This document shows positions 16,991 through 27,996 of a stretch of 64,000 bases of DNA, piece after piece; within the stretch, counting starts at the first letter, position 1; every line of letters starts with the position of its first letter. The notes under the pieces are model-generated. The model had not been told where the DNA came from. It saw only the letters and a program-made list of their open reading frames with translations, and made no database searches. The translations under genes were made by a program, and so were the position numbers. Source of the stretch: Gaertneriomyces semiglobifer (lineage: Eukaryota > Chytridiomycota > Chytridiomycetes > Spizellomycetales > Spizellomycetaceae); the NCBI GenBank assembly GCA_025558075.1, contig JAHLKF010000007.1, positions 124,001 to 188,000 on the forward strand. Direction: 5' to 3'.

Positions 16991-17566
16991 TTTTATCCCG
17001 TTGTCGGGACATTCAGTTCACTGTTGAAGGTATGGACTCACGTTTACGACTGGATGATGTTGTCGCGCCTAGTAAACACTCCGACACAGAATAAATCGCG
17101 TTGTGCTCTTGGAATAACAATTCACGCTAGATTACTTTGACAGAACGAGTGAGTAGTAAGTAGCCAGATGGAGGCAACAGAAGGCACGCTAGCTAACTGA
17201 TGTAGCATCAGTAGTGATTGGGTATGAATACGCTTTGATGCAGAACATTTGCTTCTCAAAACATCAAGATGAATGTGCAATGCCAGCTTTTGACACCATA
17301 ATTACTGCCGTTTCGAGTAGAGATGATGCTTAGAAGCAAGCGGTCCTGGAATTCCTGCAGTTTATCAAAAAGAGGTCGCAATGTTGGAAGCGGGGGGCTG
17401 TTCCGCACGCGTATCTGTGTTCTACTCCCACGTAGCTGGCGAAGAACCGGAGCCTGACAGAGTCTGACAGCCACCACATGTCGCTGTCAATATGGGATAT
17501 CAACAGTAATATCCAGTATACCGCTGGAAGTCTGCAGTCGCAATACAAGAGTTTCTCCCAAGAACG
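16991..17566. promoter_or_regulatory. Divergent promoter region between NVJ2-like gene and RNA polymerase gene
   Basis: A 576-bp stretch separates the divergent start codons at 16990 (-) and 17567 (+). No convincing coding frame is present. Both promoters must lie here; no specific motif can be called. Confidence 0.45.
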
Positions 17567-20500
17567 ATGGAGATCTTCATCGGTAACGTCAGTTACGGCC
17601 TCCAAGAGAAGCAACTAAGACGTGCCCTCCAAGGCCCACTCTCCACCTTTGGCATTCGGGCCTTTCACATCCAAATAATCAAAAAAAAGAATATCGCATT
17701 CCTCACAGTGCCGACCTTGGAGCAGGGTCAGCAGTTCCTTGAATACTATGGAGCATCTAATGTTAATGCACGGAGGCAGAAAAAGCAGATCCAGGTGATG
17801 AATCAATACCTAAGAATGAACCAAAGTAATAAGCGGCCAGCGGACTGCGACAAGGCTCTTCTACGGTCATTGGAATTGCAACAGCAACAGAGGGATGCCC
17901 AACAAAGGACCGCCAGCATCCAAACAAAGAAGAAACGGAGTTTTTCAATCAGTGGATTCGAGGTCGGGAGGTGGTCGTTGGAGGAGATTGCCCCTGCTCA
18001 TGTTTTCCTTTCTTGCTACACGAAACGGGCCGCTGGCAAGGTTCATATTGGGAAGCATCAAACGGGCATGACGATTCGTTTTAACAGACCGGAAGTCGAC
18101 GACGAAGTCAAGATCAGGATTGGGTATGCGTCAATCATGTCGATCATTATTGGACATCAGCATACTCAGTCCACTGTGTCGGTTACAATGAGACACGCAC
18201 CAAAATTCTACCACCGCCGATCATCTCCGTTCGACCTTGCTCCGTTGTTCGCGGCATTAGGCCTTCGGGAGGATCCAATGATCAGAGTGTCTGATCTGGA
18301 TCCTGATCACATGGTTACTGCGCCCGTTTGTTTCGTCTACCGGTTTGTTTTGTCGGAGCCCGAGGATCTGGAAGTTGTTGAGAGCCTCGCTGGGTCGAAT
18401 GGTGTACCGGCTATGACGAGACTACAGACGATCTCAAGAGATCATCGCTCCCTTTACCGAATTTCTTACGATAACCTTCTTCGCGATATCTCGACATTAA
18501 ATCAACACTTCAGAATTGCTTACCAGCTCACTGCGTTACTCGCAAACGGAGTCCTCCACCCACAAACCATCGCAGATCTGATTCCAACCGTGAAGGAGAT
18601 GAACCGCACTTACGGAGCAAACCAATTAGCATTCGCACTAAGAGGACTACGAGACGAGTTATGCGAAATGTCTCCCGATCCTACGTATCAGAACGAGCCC
18701 CTTACGATTGCGACCTTGTTAAGGCAGTTACATACCATTGTCGGACGGAGATGCGACCCATCAAGGCTAAACCGTTCCGACGCGGAGAGAACGAATAACG
18801 GAGAGCTGGCGTGCATTCATAGCGCCTATATCACCCCTGCCGGGCGTAATTTGGAAGGCCCAAGATTGGAAGACGCTAATCGTGTGTTGAGGCGGTACGC
18901 TGGCTACCATGACTACTTTTTGAGAGTAACCTTCAGGAAGAAGATGATGATATGATTACTGTGGAGAGGGACACGTCTTTGCGTCCGATTTATCAACGAT
19001 TTAAGGACTATTTGAGTTCGAGCAATGGGCAGTCTATTACTATTGGTGAAGACAATTCACTTTTTTGGGGTTTTCTGGAGCAGGATTAAGACAGAGGACT
19101 GTCTGGTTGGTGGCGCCTTTTGTAATGGACGGAAGGCAGACGAATGCGAAAACTATTATTGAAGAACTTGGGGATTTTTCAGGGATTCGGAATCCGGGCA
19201 AGTATGCGGCGCGGATCGGGCAGGCTTTTTCGAATACGACTGCGTCAATTGAGATTCCAGTTGAGGCTGAGTGGTTGATACCGGATGTGACGACGGTTGA
19301 GCGGGTGATGGATCCCAAGACGCGTACGTGGCGTGAGCTTGCGAGGGTGTTTAGTGATGGCTGTGGGACTATCAGCATGCAGATGGTAGAGAGGATATGG
19401 AAGATGAGTAAGCGCCATATGGTGATGATGCCGACCGTCTTTCAGATACGTTATCGAGGTACGCACCCGCGTTGTCTGTACTTTCTTCTGCCCAAGGTTC
19501 CATCGTTACCCACACCTTGGAATGGTAGGTTGCAAGGGCGTCATCTCTCTCGACTCGACTCTGGAAGGCGAGTGTATCAATCTTCGCAAATCAATGGTGA
19601 AATTCACGGTTCAGAAAGTGGAAGAAATGCGGACGCTGGAGATTTGTTCCACGACCAGCCGGCCGTTACCCATGTTTCTCAACAGACCTCTCATCAAGAT
19701 CCTGGAAGATTTGGGCGTGCCAGATCGAGCTTTTCTCGATCGGCTTCAGGAGGCACTTGCGGAGATACGCGGAACCGCTACCGATCCCTCTGCCGCTGCA
19801 CGGTTTTTGAGGAAGAGCGGAGGGGGTGTGAAGGATGTGGGGTTGCCTCGCCTTATTATTGCGCTGCCAAGCTTGGCATGAATTTCATGGATGATGAGTT
19901 TTTGCGACAGGCGTATGAGTTAGTCGTTGTTACCGTCGTGAGGGATATCAAGTATCGCGCGAGGATTGAGATTCCCGACGGGTATACTTTGATGGGTGTT
20001 ATGGATGAAACTGGATTTTTGGAACCGGAGCAAGTGTTTATAAAGACCCACACTGGAGTGCTTGTCGGGAGAGTCGTTATCACAAGGGCGCCGGCTATGC
20101 ATCCTGGCGACGTTCAGTTTGTGGAGGCGGTTAATGTTCCGCGTAGGTCTCCGCTGCATGATCTCCGCAACTGTGTTGTGTTTTCCCAGCGTGGAACGAG
20201 AGATATGCCGTCGAAGCTGAGCGGTGGGGATTTGGATGGTGATCTTTACAATGTAATCATGGATTCGGCATTCTTTCCCAGTAAGATTGTACCTCCTGCC
20301 ATTCATCCCAGAGTTGAAGCGTTGGATTTGCAACGTCCGGTGACAGTGGAAGATATGGCTGACTTTTTTATCGATTTTATGCAGAATGATATGCTTGGAC
20401 TCATATCCTCCAGACATTTGGTTGCCGCCGACCTGGCGCCTGAAGGAACGCTGGCACCACAATGTCTAGAGCTTTCCGAAGCTGCCGCTATTGCTGTTGA

Positions 20501-21266
20501 TTTCCCGAAAACAGGAGTACGAGTCGATGTGATGAAGTTGCCCAGGCCGAGCGAAGCTAGACCTGATTTTATGTCGCCTATGCCTCTCGTTGCTGTTGGT
20601 AAAGGTGGATCGGGCCGTGAACGGATTCGTCTGGAATCTGTCAAGTTGGAACGAGATGATAATGATGATGACGCCGAAGATCTGTGGACGTTTGCGTACT
20701 ACGAGTCGAACAAGATTCTGGGGAAGCTGTACCGCGCTGTCAACGAGGAAGACATTCTGCATGATTTACAAAGTTCAAACCTTGCCGATGAAAGACGCGA
20801 CGACCACTTGCTCCTTAAGATCTACCGGTACGGTTGTGAGCAATGGTCCCAGTTCTATCCCGGCACCGATTCGGAAGCCAATATTCAAGAAGCTCGAGAA
20901 CTCCAAGAAGCCTATGACGACGCTGTGCTCGACCTCGCCACGACATTTGCATTTTCGCACCAGTACATATTGCGAGAGCTGGAAGTTTTCTGCTGCATTA
21001 TTTCCGGAAAGGGAAAAGCTAGTAAGAGACAGAGAGACCTGAGTGAGGGGTTGAGGGAGCGTTTTCATGAGCTATATCAGTGGGTTACGGAGCAGATGGG
21101 GGGCGAGAGCGGGGGGACTGCCGCTTTTCAAAAGAGTTTGGCGTGTCTGGAAAGCACGCTCTCCCCGGACAATAATAGTGGAAGGACCTCAAAAGGGAGG
21201 AGCTTTGGTTGGATTGCTGCGGCTGTGCTCTTAAGTGAGATTGCGGCTTTGACAAATATACGATGA
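17567..21266 (+). CDS. RNA-dependent RNA polymerase of the gene-silencing pathway, with two apparent frameshifts
   Basis: The family is the eukaryotic RDR/QDE-1/Rdp1 enzymes, which make double-stranded RNA for Dicer. The N-terminus is RRM-like (MEIFIGNVSYGLQEKQLRRA). The core follows: SAYITPAGRNLEGP, DANRVLRRYAGYHDYFLRVTF, a GCKGVISLD block, RDIKYRARIEIPDG, and the catalytic GGDLDGDLYNVI near 20224. Two introns are supported: 19459-19528 and 19828-19871. Conserved blocks fall in three successive frames at two further places. One is near 18932-18937, right after RVTF; the other is at the T6 run 19061-19066, in the GFS motif. Each fits loss of one base. Cryptic introns could bridge both but would delete conserved residues. 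The gene may thus be a recent pseudogene, or the assembly may hold errors. The transposon island begins about 660 bp downstream. Confidence 0.85.
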
Positions 21267-23583: not shown

Positions 23584-25435
23584 TCAATGAGCATTCCCTT
23601 CAACTAATCCCATTCCAGCTCTAAGTTTGATGAACTGGTCTCTTGGTAAAGGTTTGGTAAGTGTGTCAGCAATCAGGTCCTGAGAGGGTCGGTGCTGAAC
23701 CTTGATAGTACCACTTTCCACAGCCTCTCTAATGAAGTGGAAGCGGATATCTATGTGTTTTGAGCGATCATGATGAGCTGGATTGGTGCTCATGGCTATA
23801 GAACCTTGGTTGTCACCATAAATGACTGTTGGTTATTTGGTGTTCCATTGACCAAGATCTTGCAAAAGTGTCCTGAGCCACATAGCCTCCTTAGCAGTGT
23901 TGGTAAGGGCCATATACTCTGCCTCAGCAGTAGATAGGGCGACTGTAGGCTGTTTTTTGCTTGCCCAGGCCACTGGTGAAGTCCCCAGTTTGAAGAAATA
24001 ACCAGTGGTTGACTTCCTGGTATCAATATCTCCAGCCCAATCAGCATCAGAGTAGCCAACCAGCTCCCCCTTGCTGTCTGCACCACCCAGCTTGAGTTTC
24101 AAAGCATTTGTACCTTTTAAATAGCGAATTATTCTTTTGACAGCACTCCAGTGAGCTTGTCCAGGGTTGGCCATATACTGGGAAACTTGGCTGATGGCAG
24201 TAGCCAAGTCAGGTCTGGTGCCTAGCATGGCATAGATCAAGCTACCAACTGCTTCCTTATAGGGAACTGAAGCCATGGCGAGTTTTTCTTCATTTGTACT
24301 GGGTTGATCCTCCTTGGTAAGGTGCTTTCCAGTCTCCATTGGTGTAGAAACAGGTGTGGAGGCATCCATGTTGAATTTGGCCAGGACCTTGTTGATGTAC
24401 AGTTGTTGGGAAAGGAAGATGGCCTTGTCAGAACGCTCCCTAGTGACTTGTATGCCCAGAAAATACTCCAGTGGCCCCAAATCTGTCATCTTGAACTTGC
24501 TGGACAGCTGGTTCTTGAGTTGTTCTATGGCTTCCATGTTGTTACCAGCCATAATCAGGTCATCCACATAGATTACCACATAGATCTTGATGTTGTCCTT
24601 CTGGAGCACATATAAACAATGATCAGCAACGCTTCTTTTGAATCCCAGAGCGTTCAGTTCTTTGTTGATCACTCTGTTCCACTCCCTTCCAGACTGCTTA
24701 AGTCCATATAGGGTCTTGTGCAGCAGGCATACCAAGTTGGGACCCTTCATATATCCCTCAGGTTGTTCCATATAGATAACCTCTTGCAAAACTCCGTTCA
24801 AATAGGCAGTTTTAACATCCATTTGATGTATCTCCAAGTCTTCCATGGCTGCAATTGCTAAGACTAGTCTGACAGTGTCAAACTTAGCAACTGGGGCAAA
24901 GGTCTCAGTAAAGTCAATTCCAGGCGTTTGGGAGTATCCTTTGGCGACTAATCTGGCTTTGTAGCGTTCGACAGTCCCATCTGACTTGAGTTTGAGCTTG
25001 TATACCCATTTGCATCCAATAGCCTTCCTATCAGGTGGCAGTGGAACAAGTTTCCAGGTGTTGTTGCTCATCAGGGAGGCATACTCCGCATCCATAGCCT
25101 TGATCCACTTGTCAGCATCCTTACTGGTAATTGCTTGCTGGTAAGTTTGTGGTTCCTGAACTACAGAACTTGCAGCTAAGGCATAGTAAGCGAGTTGAGC
25201 CTAGTTCAGGGCCCACCAGCTTCCAGGAGGCACACCTTTGTTGCTTCTGGTGGAAGTCCTAATAGTAGGAGCTGCTTGTAGGGGGTCCTCAGAGGTTGTT
25301 GATCCGGAATCATCATTGATTTCAGCTTGTTCAGGTTCTGAATCACTCTCCTGAATGATACTGTCTGAGTGATATTCTCACTCAACATCAGGATTTTCTC
25401 CCCCTTCAGAGTTATCACTCCAGACATGTAATTCC
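23584..25435 (-). pseudogene. Copia reverse transcriptase and RNase H remnant
   Basis: Minus-strand frame with in-frame stops at 25380-25378, 25203-25201 and 23835-23833, otherwise open to 23584. The reverse transcriptase shows CKWVYKLKLKSDGTVERYKA, QMDVKTAYLNG and the catalytic YVDD (VIYVDDLIMAG). RNase H shows GYSDADWAGD and LSTAEAEYMAL, and ends near LADTLTKPLPRDQF, the usual copia C-terminus. The three stops make it non-functional, yet conserved motifs are otherwise intact, so decay is moderate. Confidence 0.92.
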
Positions 25436-25640
25436 TGTTGTAATAGGATCCCGGTGGCATACACGCCATTGGGGTTACCCCGTTATCGGTAACTGCCATG
25501 TCAGCACTGCCCTAAGTCACATGATCTTTTCTGTCGGGAAGCGCTTAACGCAACCGTCAGTTTAGAACTTAGAACCTTAGACTTGAGAGATAACAGAGCT
25601 TATAAGAAAGATAAGAGCATCAGCAGGTTCCTCTGCAACA
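25436..25640 (+). repeat. 5' LTR of the nested element
   Basis: 205 bp, termini TGTTG...CAACA. Its three differences from the 3' copy include two at CpG sites (CCCGG against CCTGG, GCCATT against GCCGTT), as deamination of methylated cytosine would give. Confidence 0.92.
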
Positions 25641-25655
25641 GGTTATGAGCCCCGG
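25641..25655 (+). other. Primer-binding site matching the tRNA-iMet anticodon arm
   Basis: The bases after the 5' LTR read GGTTATGAGCCCC. The complement GGGCTCATAACC is the anticodon stem-loop of eukaryotic initiator methionine tRNA (CAT anticodon). Drosophila copia and yeast Ty5 are known to prime from such a half-tRNA rather than from the 3' CCA end. There is no TGG as would be expected for 3'-end priming. Confidence 0.7.
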
Positions 25656-25734
25656 CATCAACAGCTGCCTGCTTATGCTCTGCCTCTCAGTCTCCGGGTG
25701 GATCTGCCCGTTATTGACAGTTTCCGCCTGCACC

Positions 25735-26028
25735 GTTAATCCCCCTGCCAGCGATTAACGACGCCCGACACCGTTGATCCCCCTGCCTGCGATCAATGAC
25801 GACTGCTATTGAACACCTTGCCTGTGTTCAACTGCTTACACCCCCGGACCGTTGATCCCCCTGCCAGCGATTAACGACGCCCGACACTTATTGATCCCCC
25901 TGCCTGCGATCAACTGCTTACATCCCCGGACCGTTGATCCCCCTGCCTGCGATCAACGACGACTGCCATTGATCCCCCTGCCTGCGATCAACGACGACTG
26001 CTTATTGAACACCTTGCCTGTGTATAAC
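25735..26028 (+). repeat. Array of eight short hairpins in the element leader
   Basis: Eight imperfectly repeated inverted repeats lie at 25735-25759, 25773-25797, 25809-25831, 25851-25875, 25891-25913, 25933-25957, 25969-25991 and 26005-26027. Most have a 6-7-bp stem around a CCCCTGCC(T/A)GC loop. Stem versions are GTTGATC/GATCAAC, GTTAATC/GATTAAC and TTGAACAC/GTGTTCAA, so both arms change together. The last hairpin is degenerate. Spacers are short and related (GACGACTGC, ACGCCCGACACC). The array lies between the primer-binding site and the gag-like start, where retroelements carry packaging or dimerisation signals. Confidence 0.85.
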
Positions 26029-26039
26029 ACTTTTTTAAG

Positions 26040-26354
26040 ATGGCCCGCTCGACCCGCAGTGCCAAGGAGGAATTCTCGGCCCCCGACAACCCTCCGTCAC
26101 TGTTCGCTGAACGACTGCCAAACCTGGAATCCGACGCCGTGTGCCTCACGTACATATGCGGCCTCAAACCGTCTGTTCGTGCCCGCATTCGCAATCGAGT
26201 TGCCGCTGACAAGCAGACCCTTGACGTCTTACAAGCTGTCGCCCTGGAACTGGATGCATCCATGTACCGAAATGTCGTGTATGCACCGAGGGGGGAGTGT
26301 TGTAATAGGATCCTGGTGGCATACACGCCGTTGGGGTTACCCCGTTATCGGTAA
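26040..26354 (+). CDS. Short gag-like reading frame of the nested element
   Basis: 104 codons from ATG 26040, ending inside the 3' LTR. The middle (LTYICGLKPSVRARIRNRVA, then a helix ending in ALELDASMY) resembles the C-terminal part of a retrotransposon capsid domain, where a F/YxxGLKP motif is common. Only this fragment remains; there is no zinc knuckle or pol. It may be a relic, or it may help the RNA associate with capsids of a full-length partner. Confidence 0.55.
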   Translation: MARSTRSAKEEFSAPDNPPSLFAERLPNLESDAVCLTYICGLKPSVRARIRNRVAADKQTLDVLQAVALELDASMYRNVVYAPRGECCNRILVAYTPLGLPRYR

Positions 26355-26502
26355 CTGCCATGTCAGCACTGCCCTAAGTCACATGATCTTTTCTGTCGGG
26401 AAGCGCTTAACGCAACCGTCAGTTTAGAACTTAGAACCTTAGACTTGAGAGATAACAGAGCTTATAAGAAGGATAAGAGCATCAGCAGGTTCCTCTGCAA
26501 CA
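26298..26502 (+). repeat. 3' LTR of the nested element
   Basis: 205 bp, preceded directly by the purine tract GAGGGGGGAG (26288-26297), which would prime plus-strand synthesis. Confidence 0.92.
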
Positions 26503-27395
26503 ATTCCAAGTGTTGCTGTGCGTTGTTTTGTTGTTTCCAGTGTTTCCAAAGCATGTTCTCATCAAATGCTACATTTTGGCTGATGACCAACTTTTCAGCA
26601 ACTGGGTCCCAGAGCTTGTGGGCCTTGTGCTCACTGTCAGGGCCCAAATAAACACATTTCTGTGCCTTTTCATCGAGCTTTTTTCGCTTCTCCTTTGGTA
26701 TTTGAGCATATGCTATGCATCCAAAGGTCCTCAGGTTTGATAAGTCCAGTTTATGTCCAGTAAAAGCCTCAAATGGTGTTAGGTCCCCATCCAGAGTTCG
26801 AGTTGGGCTCCTGTTTCTCACATAGGCAGCCATTAGGATGGCATCTCCCCAAAAGTCTAGTGGGGTTCCAGAATGAATCAGTAGACACCTTGCAGCCTCA
26901 ACCAAGGTTCTGTTCATTCTCTCAGCTTTGCCATTCTGTTCAGGTGTATAAGGAACACTGAACTGCTGGGTAATTTTCTGTTCTTGACAGTAGGCTCTGA
27001 ATGCCTTGCTGGTGTACTCTGTACCATTGTCAGACTGCAGCACCTTGAGTTTCTTGCTGGTGATACCCTCAGCCCAAGCCAAGTAGCTCTGAAATGCAGT
27101 CAGAGCTTCAGATTTTCGCTTCATTAGGAATACAGCAGTGGCAGAGCTGCTGTCATCAATGAATGTGATGAAATACAGCTCTCCAGTTCTTCCAGGCTTG
27201 CTCATACGTCCACATATGTCTGAGTGCACCTTTTCTAAGACATTTCTGGTTCTTTTGGGGTGTTTGATCGAAAATTGGCTCTAGTAATTTTTCCAAAAGT
27301 GCATGCTTCACCTAGAGGCATGCTAGGAGCAGTCTCCAGGGCTCCCAAATGTCCTCTCTGTTGTAATTTTTGCATGCTGGCATCATTCAAATGTC
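26503..27395 (-). pseudogene. Copia integrase remnant
   Basis: Minus-strand remnant with the integrase core: a first catalytic aspartate in FITFIDDSSSATAVF, the second in LQSDNGTEYTS, and the glutamate in YTPEQNGKAERMNRT (DDE triad). The copia integrase C-terminal block GCIAYAQIPKEKRKKL and the YLGPD motif follow. A further frameshift occurs near 27275. The reading frame is then cut at 26503 by the nested element, which duplicated the five bases ATTCC here. Confidence 0.9.
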
Positions 27396-27996
27396 CTAGT
27401 CTTTGGTGCCAGAGTTCCAGGTTGTTAGTAACTGCAACAGCTGCATGGTTGCTAATGTCTCTGTCACATATAAGCCTCCATCCAATGAGGCTGTGAGTAC
27501 TGTAGTGTCATCAGCAGCCTTAATGACACATCCAGAGTCCAGAAATTCGACTTTTAAACCATTTTGAATGGTTTTCCTGACTGAGATAAGGTTCTTTTCC
27601 AATTTGGGGACATACCACACATCCCTGAGCTTGACACCATCTTTCAAAAACACAGTTCCCTGTCCAATAGCCTTAACAGAGCGGTTATCAGCAAGTATAA
27701 TGTCCTTTGGTTCCATATCCTGATAACTTTGGAACAAATTCTTATTGGCACTCATGTGTTGAGATGCTCCAGAGTCCACAATCCATCCAGTTGGTTTGTA
27801 TCCATCATTTTCCCTTGCCATAAAGAGAAAATCCACCTCTTTCTTGCTTTCAGATGCAGCATTTGCGCTCCCACTGCTGTTTTTATCATCATGCTGCTTC
27901 TTCCTGCATTCATGCTGGTAGTGTCCAGGCTTTTGGCAATAGTGACATTTGCCCTTCCTCTTGTTATTGGGGTTGTGGGCAACTTTGAATGCTTTC
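27396..27996 (-). pseudogene. Copia gag zinc knuckle and aspartic protease remnant
   Basis: Minus-strand coding remnant. It contains a CCHC zinc knuckle (CHYCQKPGHYQHEC, about 27960-27910) followed by the retropepsin motif WIVDSGASQHM and the start of the gag-pre-integrase region (LRDVWYVPKLEKNL). The frame is lost near 27470, since the expected GAG-pre-integrase sequence continues in another frame. The N-terminal capsid part of gag is absent because the sequence starts at the LTR border. Confidence 0.85.

What the first reader, a model, noticed from the sequence alone, without database searches (positions are those of the whole stretch)
25735..26028. Array of eight covarying hairpins in the leader of a non-autonomous LTR element
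Between the primer-binding site and the gag-like start of the nested element, eight inverted repeats follow each other every 30-45 bp. The stems are not just copied: GTTGATC/GATCAAC, GTTAATC/GATTAAC and TTGAACAC/GTGTTCAA change on both arms together, and one copy has a single G.U (GTTGATC/GATTAAC). Tandem duplication alone would not keep pairing after mutation, so selection for RNA (or cruciform) structure is likely. The position is where retroviruses and Ty elements carry packaging and dimerisation signals. A multi-hairpin signal of this kind in a TRIM-like element is not something I know to be described. It could be how a tiny parasite captures another element's capsids.
Basis: partly seen in the sequence, partly recalled or inferred. 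Interest (0 to 1): 0.82.

Follow-up and report, generated by a model that had tools for sequence, protein, structure and literature searches.

The report
Repeated RNA hairpins in mini-retrotransposon leader
A tiny, gene-poor jumping element in a fungal genome carries a row of eight small hairpins between its primer site and its leftover gag start; its large protein-coding relatives usually carry shorter rows, so the row may be an RNA handle by which the parasite is packaged by them, though this is not proven.

Summary
Eight 25-nt inverted repeats lie at 25735-26028, 35-43 nt apart: seven sound hairpins and one weak chimeric one, around a near-constant 7-nt loop C(C/U)UGCC(U/A). They sit between the primer-binding site and a gag remnant of a 1,067-bp LTR element with a 5-bp target duplication. 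The element moved recently: 11 LTR pairs read, 98-100% identical. It is an internally deleted relative of a roughly 5-kb Copia-type element whose leaders carry the same hairpins, four or five in 25 of 30. Stems vary less than linkers. Two-arm changes are seen between hairpin types (3 of 8 pairs) and exceed shuffles on three of five measures, not on the two that resist relatedness; 0 of 35 pairs show them between homologous hairpins of 18 copies. So the covariation claim is only partly met, and sense-strand selection is not shown. Best explanation: a modular Gag-recognition (packaging or dimerisation) signal that the parasite kept and lengthened. Function is inferred. The 104-aa mini-gag frame shows no protein constraint. 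The presumed helper is unusual: Copia polymerase, Ty3-type Gag and a chromodomain.

The parts
25431..25435 (.). 5' target-site duplication ATTCC
   Evidence: flanks TAATTCC and ATTCCAA
25436..25640 (+). 5' LTR, 205 bp
25641..25654 (+). primer-binding site GGTTATGAGCCCCG, complementary to 14 nt of the anticodon arm of the genome's tRNA-Met(CAT)
25645..25758 (+). upstream AUG frame (37 codons) that ends inside hairpin 1
25695..25710 (+). CGGG...CCCG inverted repeat upstream of the array, seen by eye also in L051, L054 and L056, not tested; not paired this way in the window leader's minimum-energy fold
25735..25759 (+). hairpin 1, type A, GTTAATC/GATTAAC, loop CCUGCCA
25773..25797 (+). hairpin 2, type B, GTTGATC/GATCAAT (outer G.U)
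25808..25832 (+). hairpin 3, type C, TTGAACAC/GTGTTCAA, loop CUUGCCU
25851..25875 (+). hairpin 4, B left arm with A right arm, GTTGATC/GATTAAC (G.U)
25890..25914 (+). hairpin 5, type B, TTGATC/GATCAA
25933..25957 (+). hairpin 6, type B, GTTGATC/GATCAAC
25968..25992 (+). hairpin 7, type B, TTGATC/GATCAA
26004..26028 (+). hairpin 8, weak, C left arm with D right arm, TTGAACAC/GTGTATAA
26040..26354 (+). mini-gag frame, 104 aa: first 26 residues of Gag joined in frame to residues 149-201, running on through the polypurine tract into the 3' LTR; no protein constraint seen
26288..26297 (+). polypurine tract GAGGGGGGAG
26298..26502 (+). 3' LTR, 205 bp, 3 differences from the 5' LTR
26503..26507 (.). 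3' target-site duplication ATTCC

Best explanation
The array is a cis-acting RNA signal of a Copia-type retrotransposon lineage: a row of short hairpins presenting nearly the same 7-nt loop C(C/U)UGCC(U/A) on different stems, lying in the genomic RNA between the primer-binding site and the gag start. The Gag of the protein-coding elements (which has a CCHC-like motif) probably recognises the loops and drives packaging and/or dimerisation. The short element kept LTRs, primer site, array, a stub of gag and the polypurine tract, lost the genes for its own mobility, and has 6-9 hairpins, which could help it compete for the helper's particles. Shown here: anatomy, sharing of the array with coding relatives, recent mobility, stem conservation relative to linkers, longer arrays in the short family. 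Inferred: that the RNA folds this way in the cell, that Gag binds it, that longer arrays package better.
For: Position between primer site and gag start. Same hairpins in leaders of relatives with Gag, among them L022 with a 1,481-aa frame. Motif nearly confined to these leaders: 58 of 59 genome hits of ACACCYTGCCTGTG, reversed control 5; ATCMCCCTGCCW 137 hits, reversed control 5, and of the 100 listed 9 lie outside known leaders. 57 distinct units: 83.3% of cells paired against 74.0 +/- 0.9 shuffled, 30 two-sided cells against 12.5 +/- 2.4, covariation score 0.244 against 0.132 +/- 0.012 shuffled and at most 0.078 slid. B-to-C stem differences fall on matched positions, P = 0.004 by random placement; A-to-C 0.0008. 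Stems vary least: pi 0.018 against linkers 0.071 and gag third positions 0.056; informative sites 1/72 against 8/52, p = 0.004. 11 short-element LTR pairs 201-205 of 205 identical, insertions with 5-bp duplications, hence moved in trans. Arrays longer in the short family, median 8 (12 arrays) against 4 (30).
Against: 0 of 35 pairs show two-sided change across 18 homologous leaders. In one search the count of pairs with two-sided change (3 against 3.6) and of further pair types (9 against 8.9) do not exceed shuffles. A-to-B stem difference alone is not significant, P = 0.08; variable sites in stems against gag third positions p = 0.09. One-sided changes: G.U 7, A.C 10, other breaks 9. The antisense strand folds with a more extreme z than the sense strand, -5.8 against -4.3, and core pair probabilities of single hairpins in the whole-leader fold run from 0.06 (unit 7) to 1.0 (unit 3). 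L047, a short element with the same LTR, has 4 hairpins; two long relatives (L019, L020) have 7. Copies are related, so the array-length p-value is not a true probability. The CCHC-like motif was read by eye; Pfam gave no zinc-knuckle match. No Gag-binding or packaging data.
Confidence: 0.45

Rival explanations
1. Translational leader element: hairpins shape scanning, shunting or internal initiation so that gag is translated despite a long leader and an upstream AUG; packaging is not involved.
For: The array is AUG-poor: 1 ATG in the window array against 7.5 in shuffles, 11 ATG in 44 arrays; an upstream frame starts in the primer site and ends in hairpin 1. In the window 11 nt separate the last unit from the gag ATG, and most leaders are similar.
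Against: The short element keeps a long array although its mini-gag frame shows no protein constraint (6 synonymous against 16 non-synonymous variable codons in 8 frames, two of them genomic duplicates). A repeated unit without ATG lowers the AUG count automatically, so the depletion counts as few events.
Confidence: 0.18
2. No selected function: a quasi-palindromic unit that expands and contracts by template switching in reverse transcription or unequal exchange, with hairpin-templated correction keeping arms complementary.
For: Array length and order differ among young copies; units with the left arm of one type and the right arm of another suggest exchange within the shared loop. No two-sided change at homologous hairpins; two of five covariation measures at shuffled level; point changes show no clear strand bias.
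Against: 24 of 30 coding-type leaders keep the order A B C D or A B B C D, with stems more conserved than linkers. The C.C mismatch, G.U pairs and the D bulge persist, which palindrome correction should erase. The loop is near-constant while stems differ.
Confidence: 0.25
3. The array binds a host RNA-binding protein (nuclear export, stability or localisation) through the repeated loop rather than Gag.
For: A near-constant loop on variable stems in repeated copies is the expected look of a protein-binding hairpin; no stretch complementary to the loop (GGCAG, GGCAAG or longer) lies in the 1,067-bp element, which argues against loop pairing within it.
Against: The two motif patterns are rare outside these leaders, as expected for an element-specific partner; no host candidate was sought.
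Confidence: 0.1

Closest known systems
TRIM elements (for example ta-TRIM of Echinococcus, PMC4558846; passages seen)
   Same: Short LTR element with primer site, polypurine tract, 4-5-bp target duplications and no mobility genes, presumed mobilised in trans. That paper gives an internal region of about 590 bp and says it may hold a packaging signal, which is difficult to identify.
   Different: Here coding relatives share the leader, and the putative signal is visible as a hairpin array. The internal region (657 bp) exceeds the strict TRIM size that I recall.
Ty1 mini-element / 5' cis-acting region (PMC4974528; passages seen)
   Same: Copia superfamily; cis signals for packaging lie near the 5' end; mini-elements without functional gene products move if proteins come in trans.
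   Different: Ty1's region is described with a pseudoknot and long-range pairings; Ty1's primer site is complementary to the tRNA 3' acceptor end, here to the anticodon arm.
Multi-stem-loop retroviral packaging signals (recalled; from no call)
   Same: Several stem-loops between primer site and gag, bound by Gag.
   Different: Not tandem copies of one loop whose number varies from copy to copy.
CoDi-I / CoDi-A Copia elements of diatoms (PMC5348765, PMC2774666; passages seen)
   Same: Copia-type pol with a chromodomain after the integrase, like the coding relative here.
   Different: Fungal host and a Gag matching Ty3-type models here; no sequence comparison with CoDi was made.

Membership tests
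TRIM (terminal-repeat retrotransposon in miniature) | two near-identical short LTRs with target duplication, primer site and polypurine tract | tested here: met
   205-bp LTRs, duplication ATTCC, primer site and GAGGGGGGAG
TRIM (terminal-repeat retrotransposon in miniature) | no proteins needed for mobility | tested here: met
   longest ATG-started sense frame starting in the internal region is the 104-aa gag remnant, no Pfam match; a TTG-started 191-aa frame overlaps the array and was not searched
TRIM (terminal-repeat retrotransposon in miniature) | very short internal region (about 100-300 bp in the plant definition, recalled) | tested here: not met
   internal region 657 bp; called TRIM-like for that reason
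Copia superfamily (Pseudoviridae), for the coding relative L022 | Copia-type reverse transcriptase with integrase upstream of it in one polyprotein | tested here: met
   rve at 607-686, RVT_2 at 934-1169 of 1,481 aa
Copia superfamily (Pseudoviridae), for the coding relative L022 | Gag of the type usual in Copia elements (a usual, not a defining, feature; recalled) | tested here: not met
   Gag matches Retrotrans_gag (1.5e-12) and Ty3_capsid (3.4e-11) instead
Retroelement packaging signal | selective recognition by Gag and enrichment in particles | not testable with these tools
   no binding or particle data
Conserved structured RNA by covariation | two-sided changes at homologous pairs across copies | tested here: not met
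   0 of 35 pairs in 18 leaders, which are 94% alike and so hold little information; positive on three of five measures between unit types
Any Rfam 15 family | match at E up to 1 | tested here: not met
   no match in 25400-26550

The most novel reading that the evidence does not exclude
The short element parasitises its helper by array expansion: it carries roughly twice as many Gag-binding hairpins as the coding elements, so its RNA outcompetes theirs for particles; array length is a quantitative arms-race trait that changes by recombination within the shared loop.
Probability: 0.25. Interest if true: 0.78.

Novelty: new variant of a known kind. Interest (0 to 1): 0.5.

Why it matters
How gene-less LTR elements are selected into another element's particles is little known; the ta-TRIM paper presumes a packaging signal but calls it difficult to identify (PMC4558846, passages). 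Here one genome holds the short element, its coding relatives and many natural array-length variants, so Gag binding or particle content can be measured against hairpin number. If array length sets packaging, it gives a simple, countable mechanism for retrotransposon parasitism.

Tried and rejected
Covariation at homologous hairpins: none found. Strand test by one-sided changes: G.U 7 distinct changes (5 in more than one locus), A.C 10 (3 in more than one locus, all the same G>A in GCGA, a CpG), other breaks 9; Fisher on shared against single p = 0.15. Some of these rows are not point changes: one G.U row is mostly the C/D chimera, one A.C row is the A/B chimera of L017, and three rows come from an inserted C in L041. 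Sense against antisense folding: antisense more extreme. Mini-gag as a selected protein: not supported (8 frames found in the 10 loci given). Pairing of the loop within the element: no complement found. Known RNA family: none. Relatives elsewhere: two exact hairpin patterns gave 0 hits in viral contigs (2 of 8 scans used); the Gag region gave no homologue at E <= 0.001 among the 7,991 candidates scored. No other fungal DNA collection was at hand, so distribution beyond this genome is unknown.

Rows dropped: D-type and C/D units were left out of the 57-unit alignment because of the bulge. L028 (one hairpin left) was left out of the length counts; L030, L046 (first array), L047, L048, L051, L052 and L054 were left out of the 12-against-30 comparison: L048 (non-autonomous, 8 hairpins) fits the trend, L047 (short, 4) goes against it, the rest have 3-5. 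L029 was counted as 3 (one search printed 2). In the conservation test 3 of 18 leaders were dropped because the gag start word was not found. A further relative at C13:453538-454646 was seen in searches but not fetched. The 30 'coding-type' leaders were assigned by LTR and gag similarity; only L022 was checked domain by domain.

Full report
What is there. The window holds a complete short LTR element at 25436-26502, inserted into an older Copia-type element that runs on the minus strand (reverse transcriptase match on one side, integrase and Pol_BBD matches on the other). Its LTRs are 205 bp with 3 differences, flanked by the 5-bp duplication ATTCC. Directly after the 5' LTR, 14 nt are complementary to the anticodon arm (positions 26-39 or 27-40) of three tRNA-Met(CAT) genes, the three of six fetched stretches in which ARAGORN found a tRNA; I recall half-tRNA priming of this type from copia and Ty5. 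Then come a leader, eight hairpins, a 104-aa frame with a gag remnant, and a polypurine tract. The genome is 20.86 Mb in 66 contigs and by content fungal: the Fungal_trans domain gives 11 matches there and none in the 14 control genomes.

Hairpins. Each unit is a stem of 6-8 bp around the loop C(C/U)UGCC(U/A). Four main stem types recur: A GTTAATC/GATTAAC, B (G)TTGATC/GATCAA(C), C TTGAACAC/GTGTTCAA and D TTATTGCAC/GTGTATAA, the last with a bulge. Some other leaders add a type E, GGATCAC/GTGTTCC. The window order is A, B, C, B/A, B, B, B, C/D. Perfect inverted repeats of at least 6 bp number 6 against 0.15 in shuffles.

Relatives. A DNA search with the leader gave 62 matches in the genome, with 40 of 79 candidates scored, so counts are lower bounds. 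Short-family arrays: 12 read, with 6-9 hairpins, median 8. Leaders assigned to coding-type elements: 30 counted, with 3-7 hairpins, median 4 (three have 3, nineteen 4, six 5, two 7); 24 of the 30 are in the order A B C D or A B B C D. The rank test gives p = 4e-7, but copies are related, so it overstates the case. A separate lineage with about 1.1 kb between primer site and 3' LTR, too little for pol (L048, places), has 8; one short element with the same LTR (L047) has 4. Two gag relatives, L053 and L055, show no array or primer site by eye in the stretch fetched upstream. Among coding relatives, L022 has a single frame of 1,481 aa with Gag, integrase, chromodomain and Copia reverse transcriptase; 8 of the 84 rows of the Gag search show an open frame of at least 1,400 aa with no stop in the matched part.

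The short element looks like an internal deletion product: its gag frame joins residues 1-26 to 149-201 of the long Gag. It is young and mobile: besides the window copy, insertions with their own 5-bp duplications were read at L010, L011, L012, L014, L015, L017, L013 (two copies with the same duplication, so one is a genomic duplicate) and L016 (two elements in tandem sharing an LTR); the 11 LTR pairs are 201-205 of 205 identical. Since it encodes nothing for mobility, it must be moved in trans; coding relatives sharing its leader are the natural helpers, but this is inference, and their LTRs match only over the last 75 bp or so at about 80-86% in most cases.

Is the structure selected? Between unit types the evidence is mixed but leans yes. 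In 57 distinct units 83.3% of cells pair against 74.0 +/- 0.9 after shuffling, two-sided cells are 30 against 12.5 +/- 2.4, and the covariation score is 0.244 against 0.132 +/- 0.012, falling to 0.078 or less when partners are slid. Three of 8 pairs show two-sided change (T-A to A-T, G-C to A-U with G.U also seen, T-A to G-C). But the number of such pairs (3 against 3.6 shuffled) and of pair types (9 against 8.9) are not above shuffles, and the tool describes these two measures as the least misled by relatedness; each change may be a single old event. B-to-C differences fall on matched positions with P = 0.004, A-to-C 0.0008, A-to-B 0.08. In 15 coding-type leaders the stems are the least variable class: pi 0.018, against 0.071 for linkers, 0.036 for loops, 0.031-0.032 for gag first and second positions and 0.056 for third positions. 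Informative sites: 1/72 in stems against 8/52 in linkers (p = 0.004) and 10/80 in third positions (p = 0.01); variable sites: 9/72 against 15/52 (p = 0.04) and 19/80 (p = 0.09). Against selection for pairing, 18 homologous leaders give 0 of 35 pairs with two-sided change; they are 94% alike, so the test has little power. In the D stem one pair is seen as G-U 15, A-U 2 and G-C 1, all pairing as sense RNA; that is the best hint of strand, and it is slight. Antisense folding is more extreme than sense folding.

How the array changes. The last unit of the short family has the left arm of C and the right arm of D, as a deletion between neighbouring loops would leave; B-left with A-right units could likewise be chimeras. 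Mixed units carried by several loci (B/A, C/D) still pair wholly or in part; units seen in one locus include ones that pair less well (A/B in L017, B/C in L020). The numbers are too few for a test.

Mechanism. A near-constant loop on varied stems, in several copies, placed between primer site and gag and kept when nearly all else was lost, looks most like a recognition signal for Gag. In Ty1, cis signals for packaging lie near the 5' end, and mini-elements retaining the ends move when proteins come in trans (PMC4974528, passages). I put packaging or dimerisation at 0.45; translation, a host-protein site and no function are rivals.

Novelty. Searches on TRIM with packaging and hairpin (20 of 3,005 papers listed), leader stem-loops and packaging signals (8 of 8), tandem repeats and hairpins in leaders (12 of 32), TRIM-like elements in fungi (12 of 78) and parasite packaging (10 of 11) showed, in titles and abstract starts, no description of a tandem-hairpin leader of this kind; of these papers I saw passages of PMC4558846 only. 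The lists are capped and the library omits most subscription papers, so this is weak evidence of absence.

Noticed in passing
L022:1367-5812: The coding relative joins a Copia-type reverse transcriptase and integrase to a Gag that matches Ty3-type models and to a chromodomain between them and the reverse transcriptase (Pfam Chromo 7.7e-5, 23.0 bits, under its cut-off of 25.1; best PDB match a chromo domain protein at 4e-4). Passages seen name chromodomains in Copia only for diatom CoDi elements.
   Followed up: partly
window 17510-21263 (+): An RNA-dependent RNA polymerase gene in two long frames, with a fungal RdRP-associated PH-like domain.
   Followed up: no
window 23836-27995 (-): The short element sits inside a minus-strand Copia-type element that is broken into several frames.
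   Followed up: partly
L013: Two short elements with the same target duplication lie in a stretch with many repeats spaced about 90 bp or multiples of it, so one is a genomic duplicate.
   Followed up: no
L016:874-2766: Tandem arrangement LTR-internal-LTR-internal-LTR of two short elements with different array lengths, 9 and 6.
   Followed up: no
G000:C16:123155-123782 (L055 upstream): A distant Gag relative (40 and 43% identity in two pieces) with no LTR, primer site or hairpin array seen by eye in the 1 kb fetched; possibly a captured gag.
   Followed up: partly
G000:C5:31220-31780 (L053 upstream): A Gag relative (82% identity) whose gag start follows unrelated DNA without primer site or array, by eye.
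   Followed up: no
window 25727-26037: The array is poor in ATG (1 against 7.5 in shuffles), and an upstream frame from the primer site ends inside hairpin 1.
   Followed up: partly
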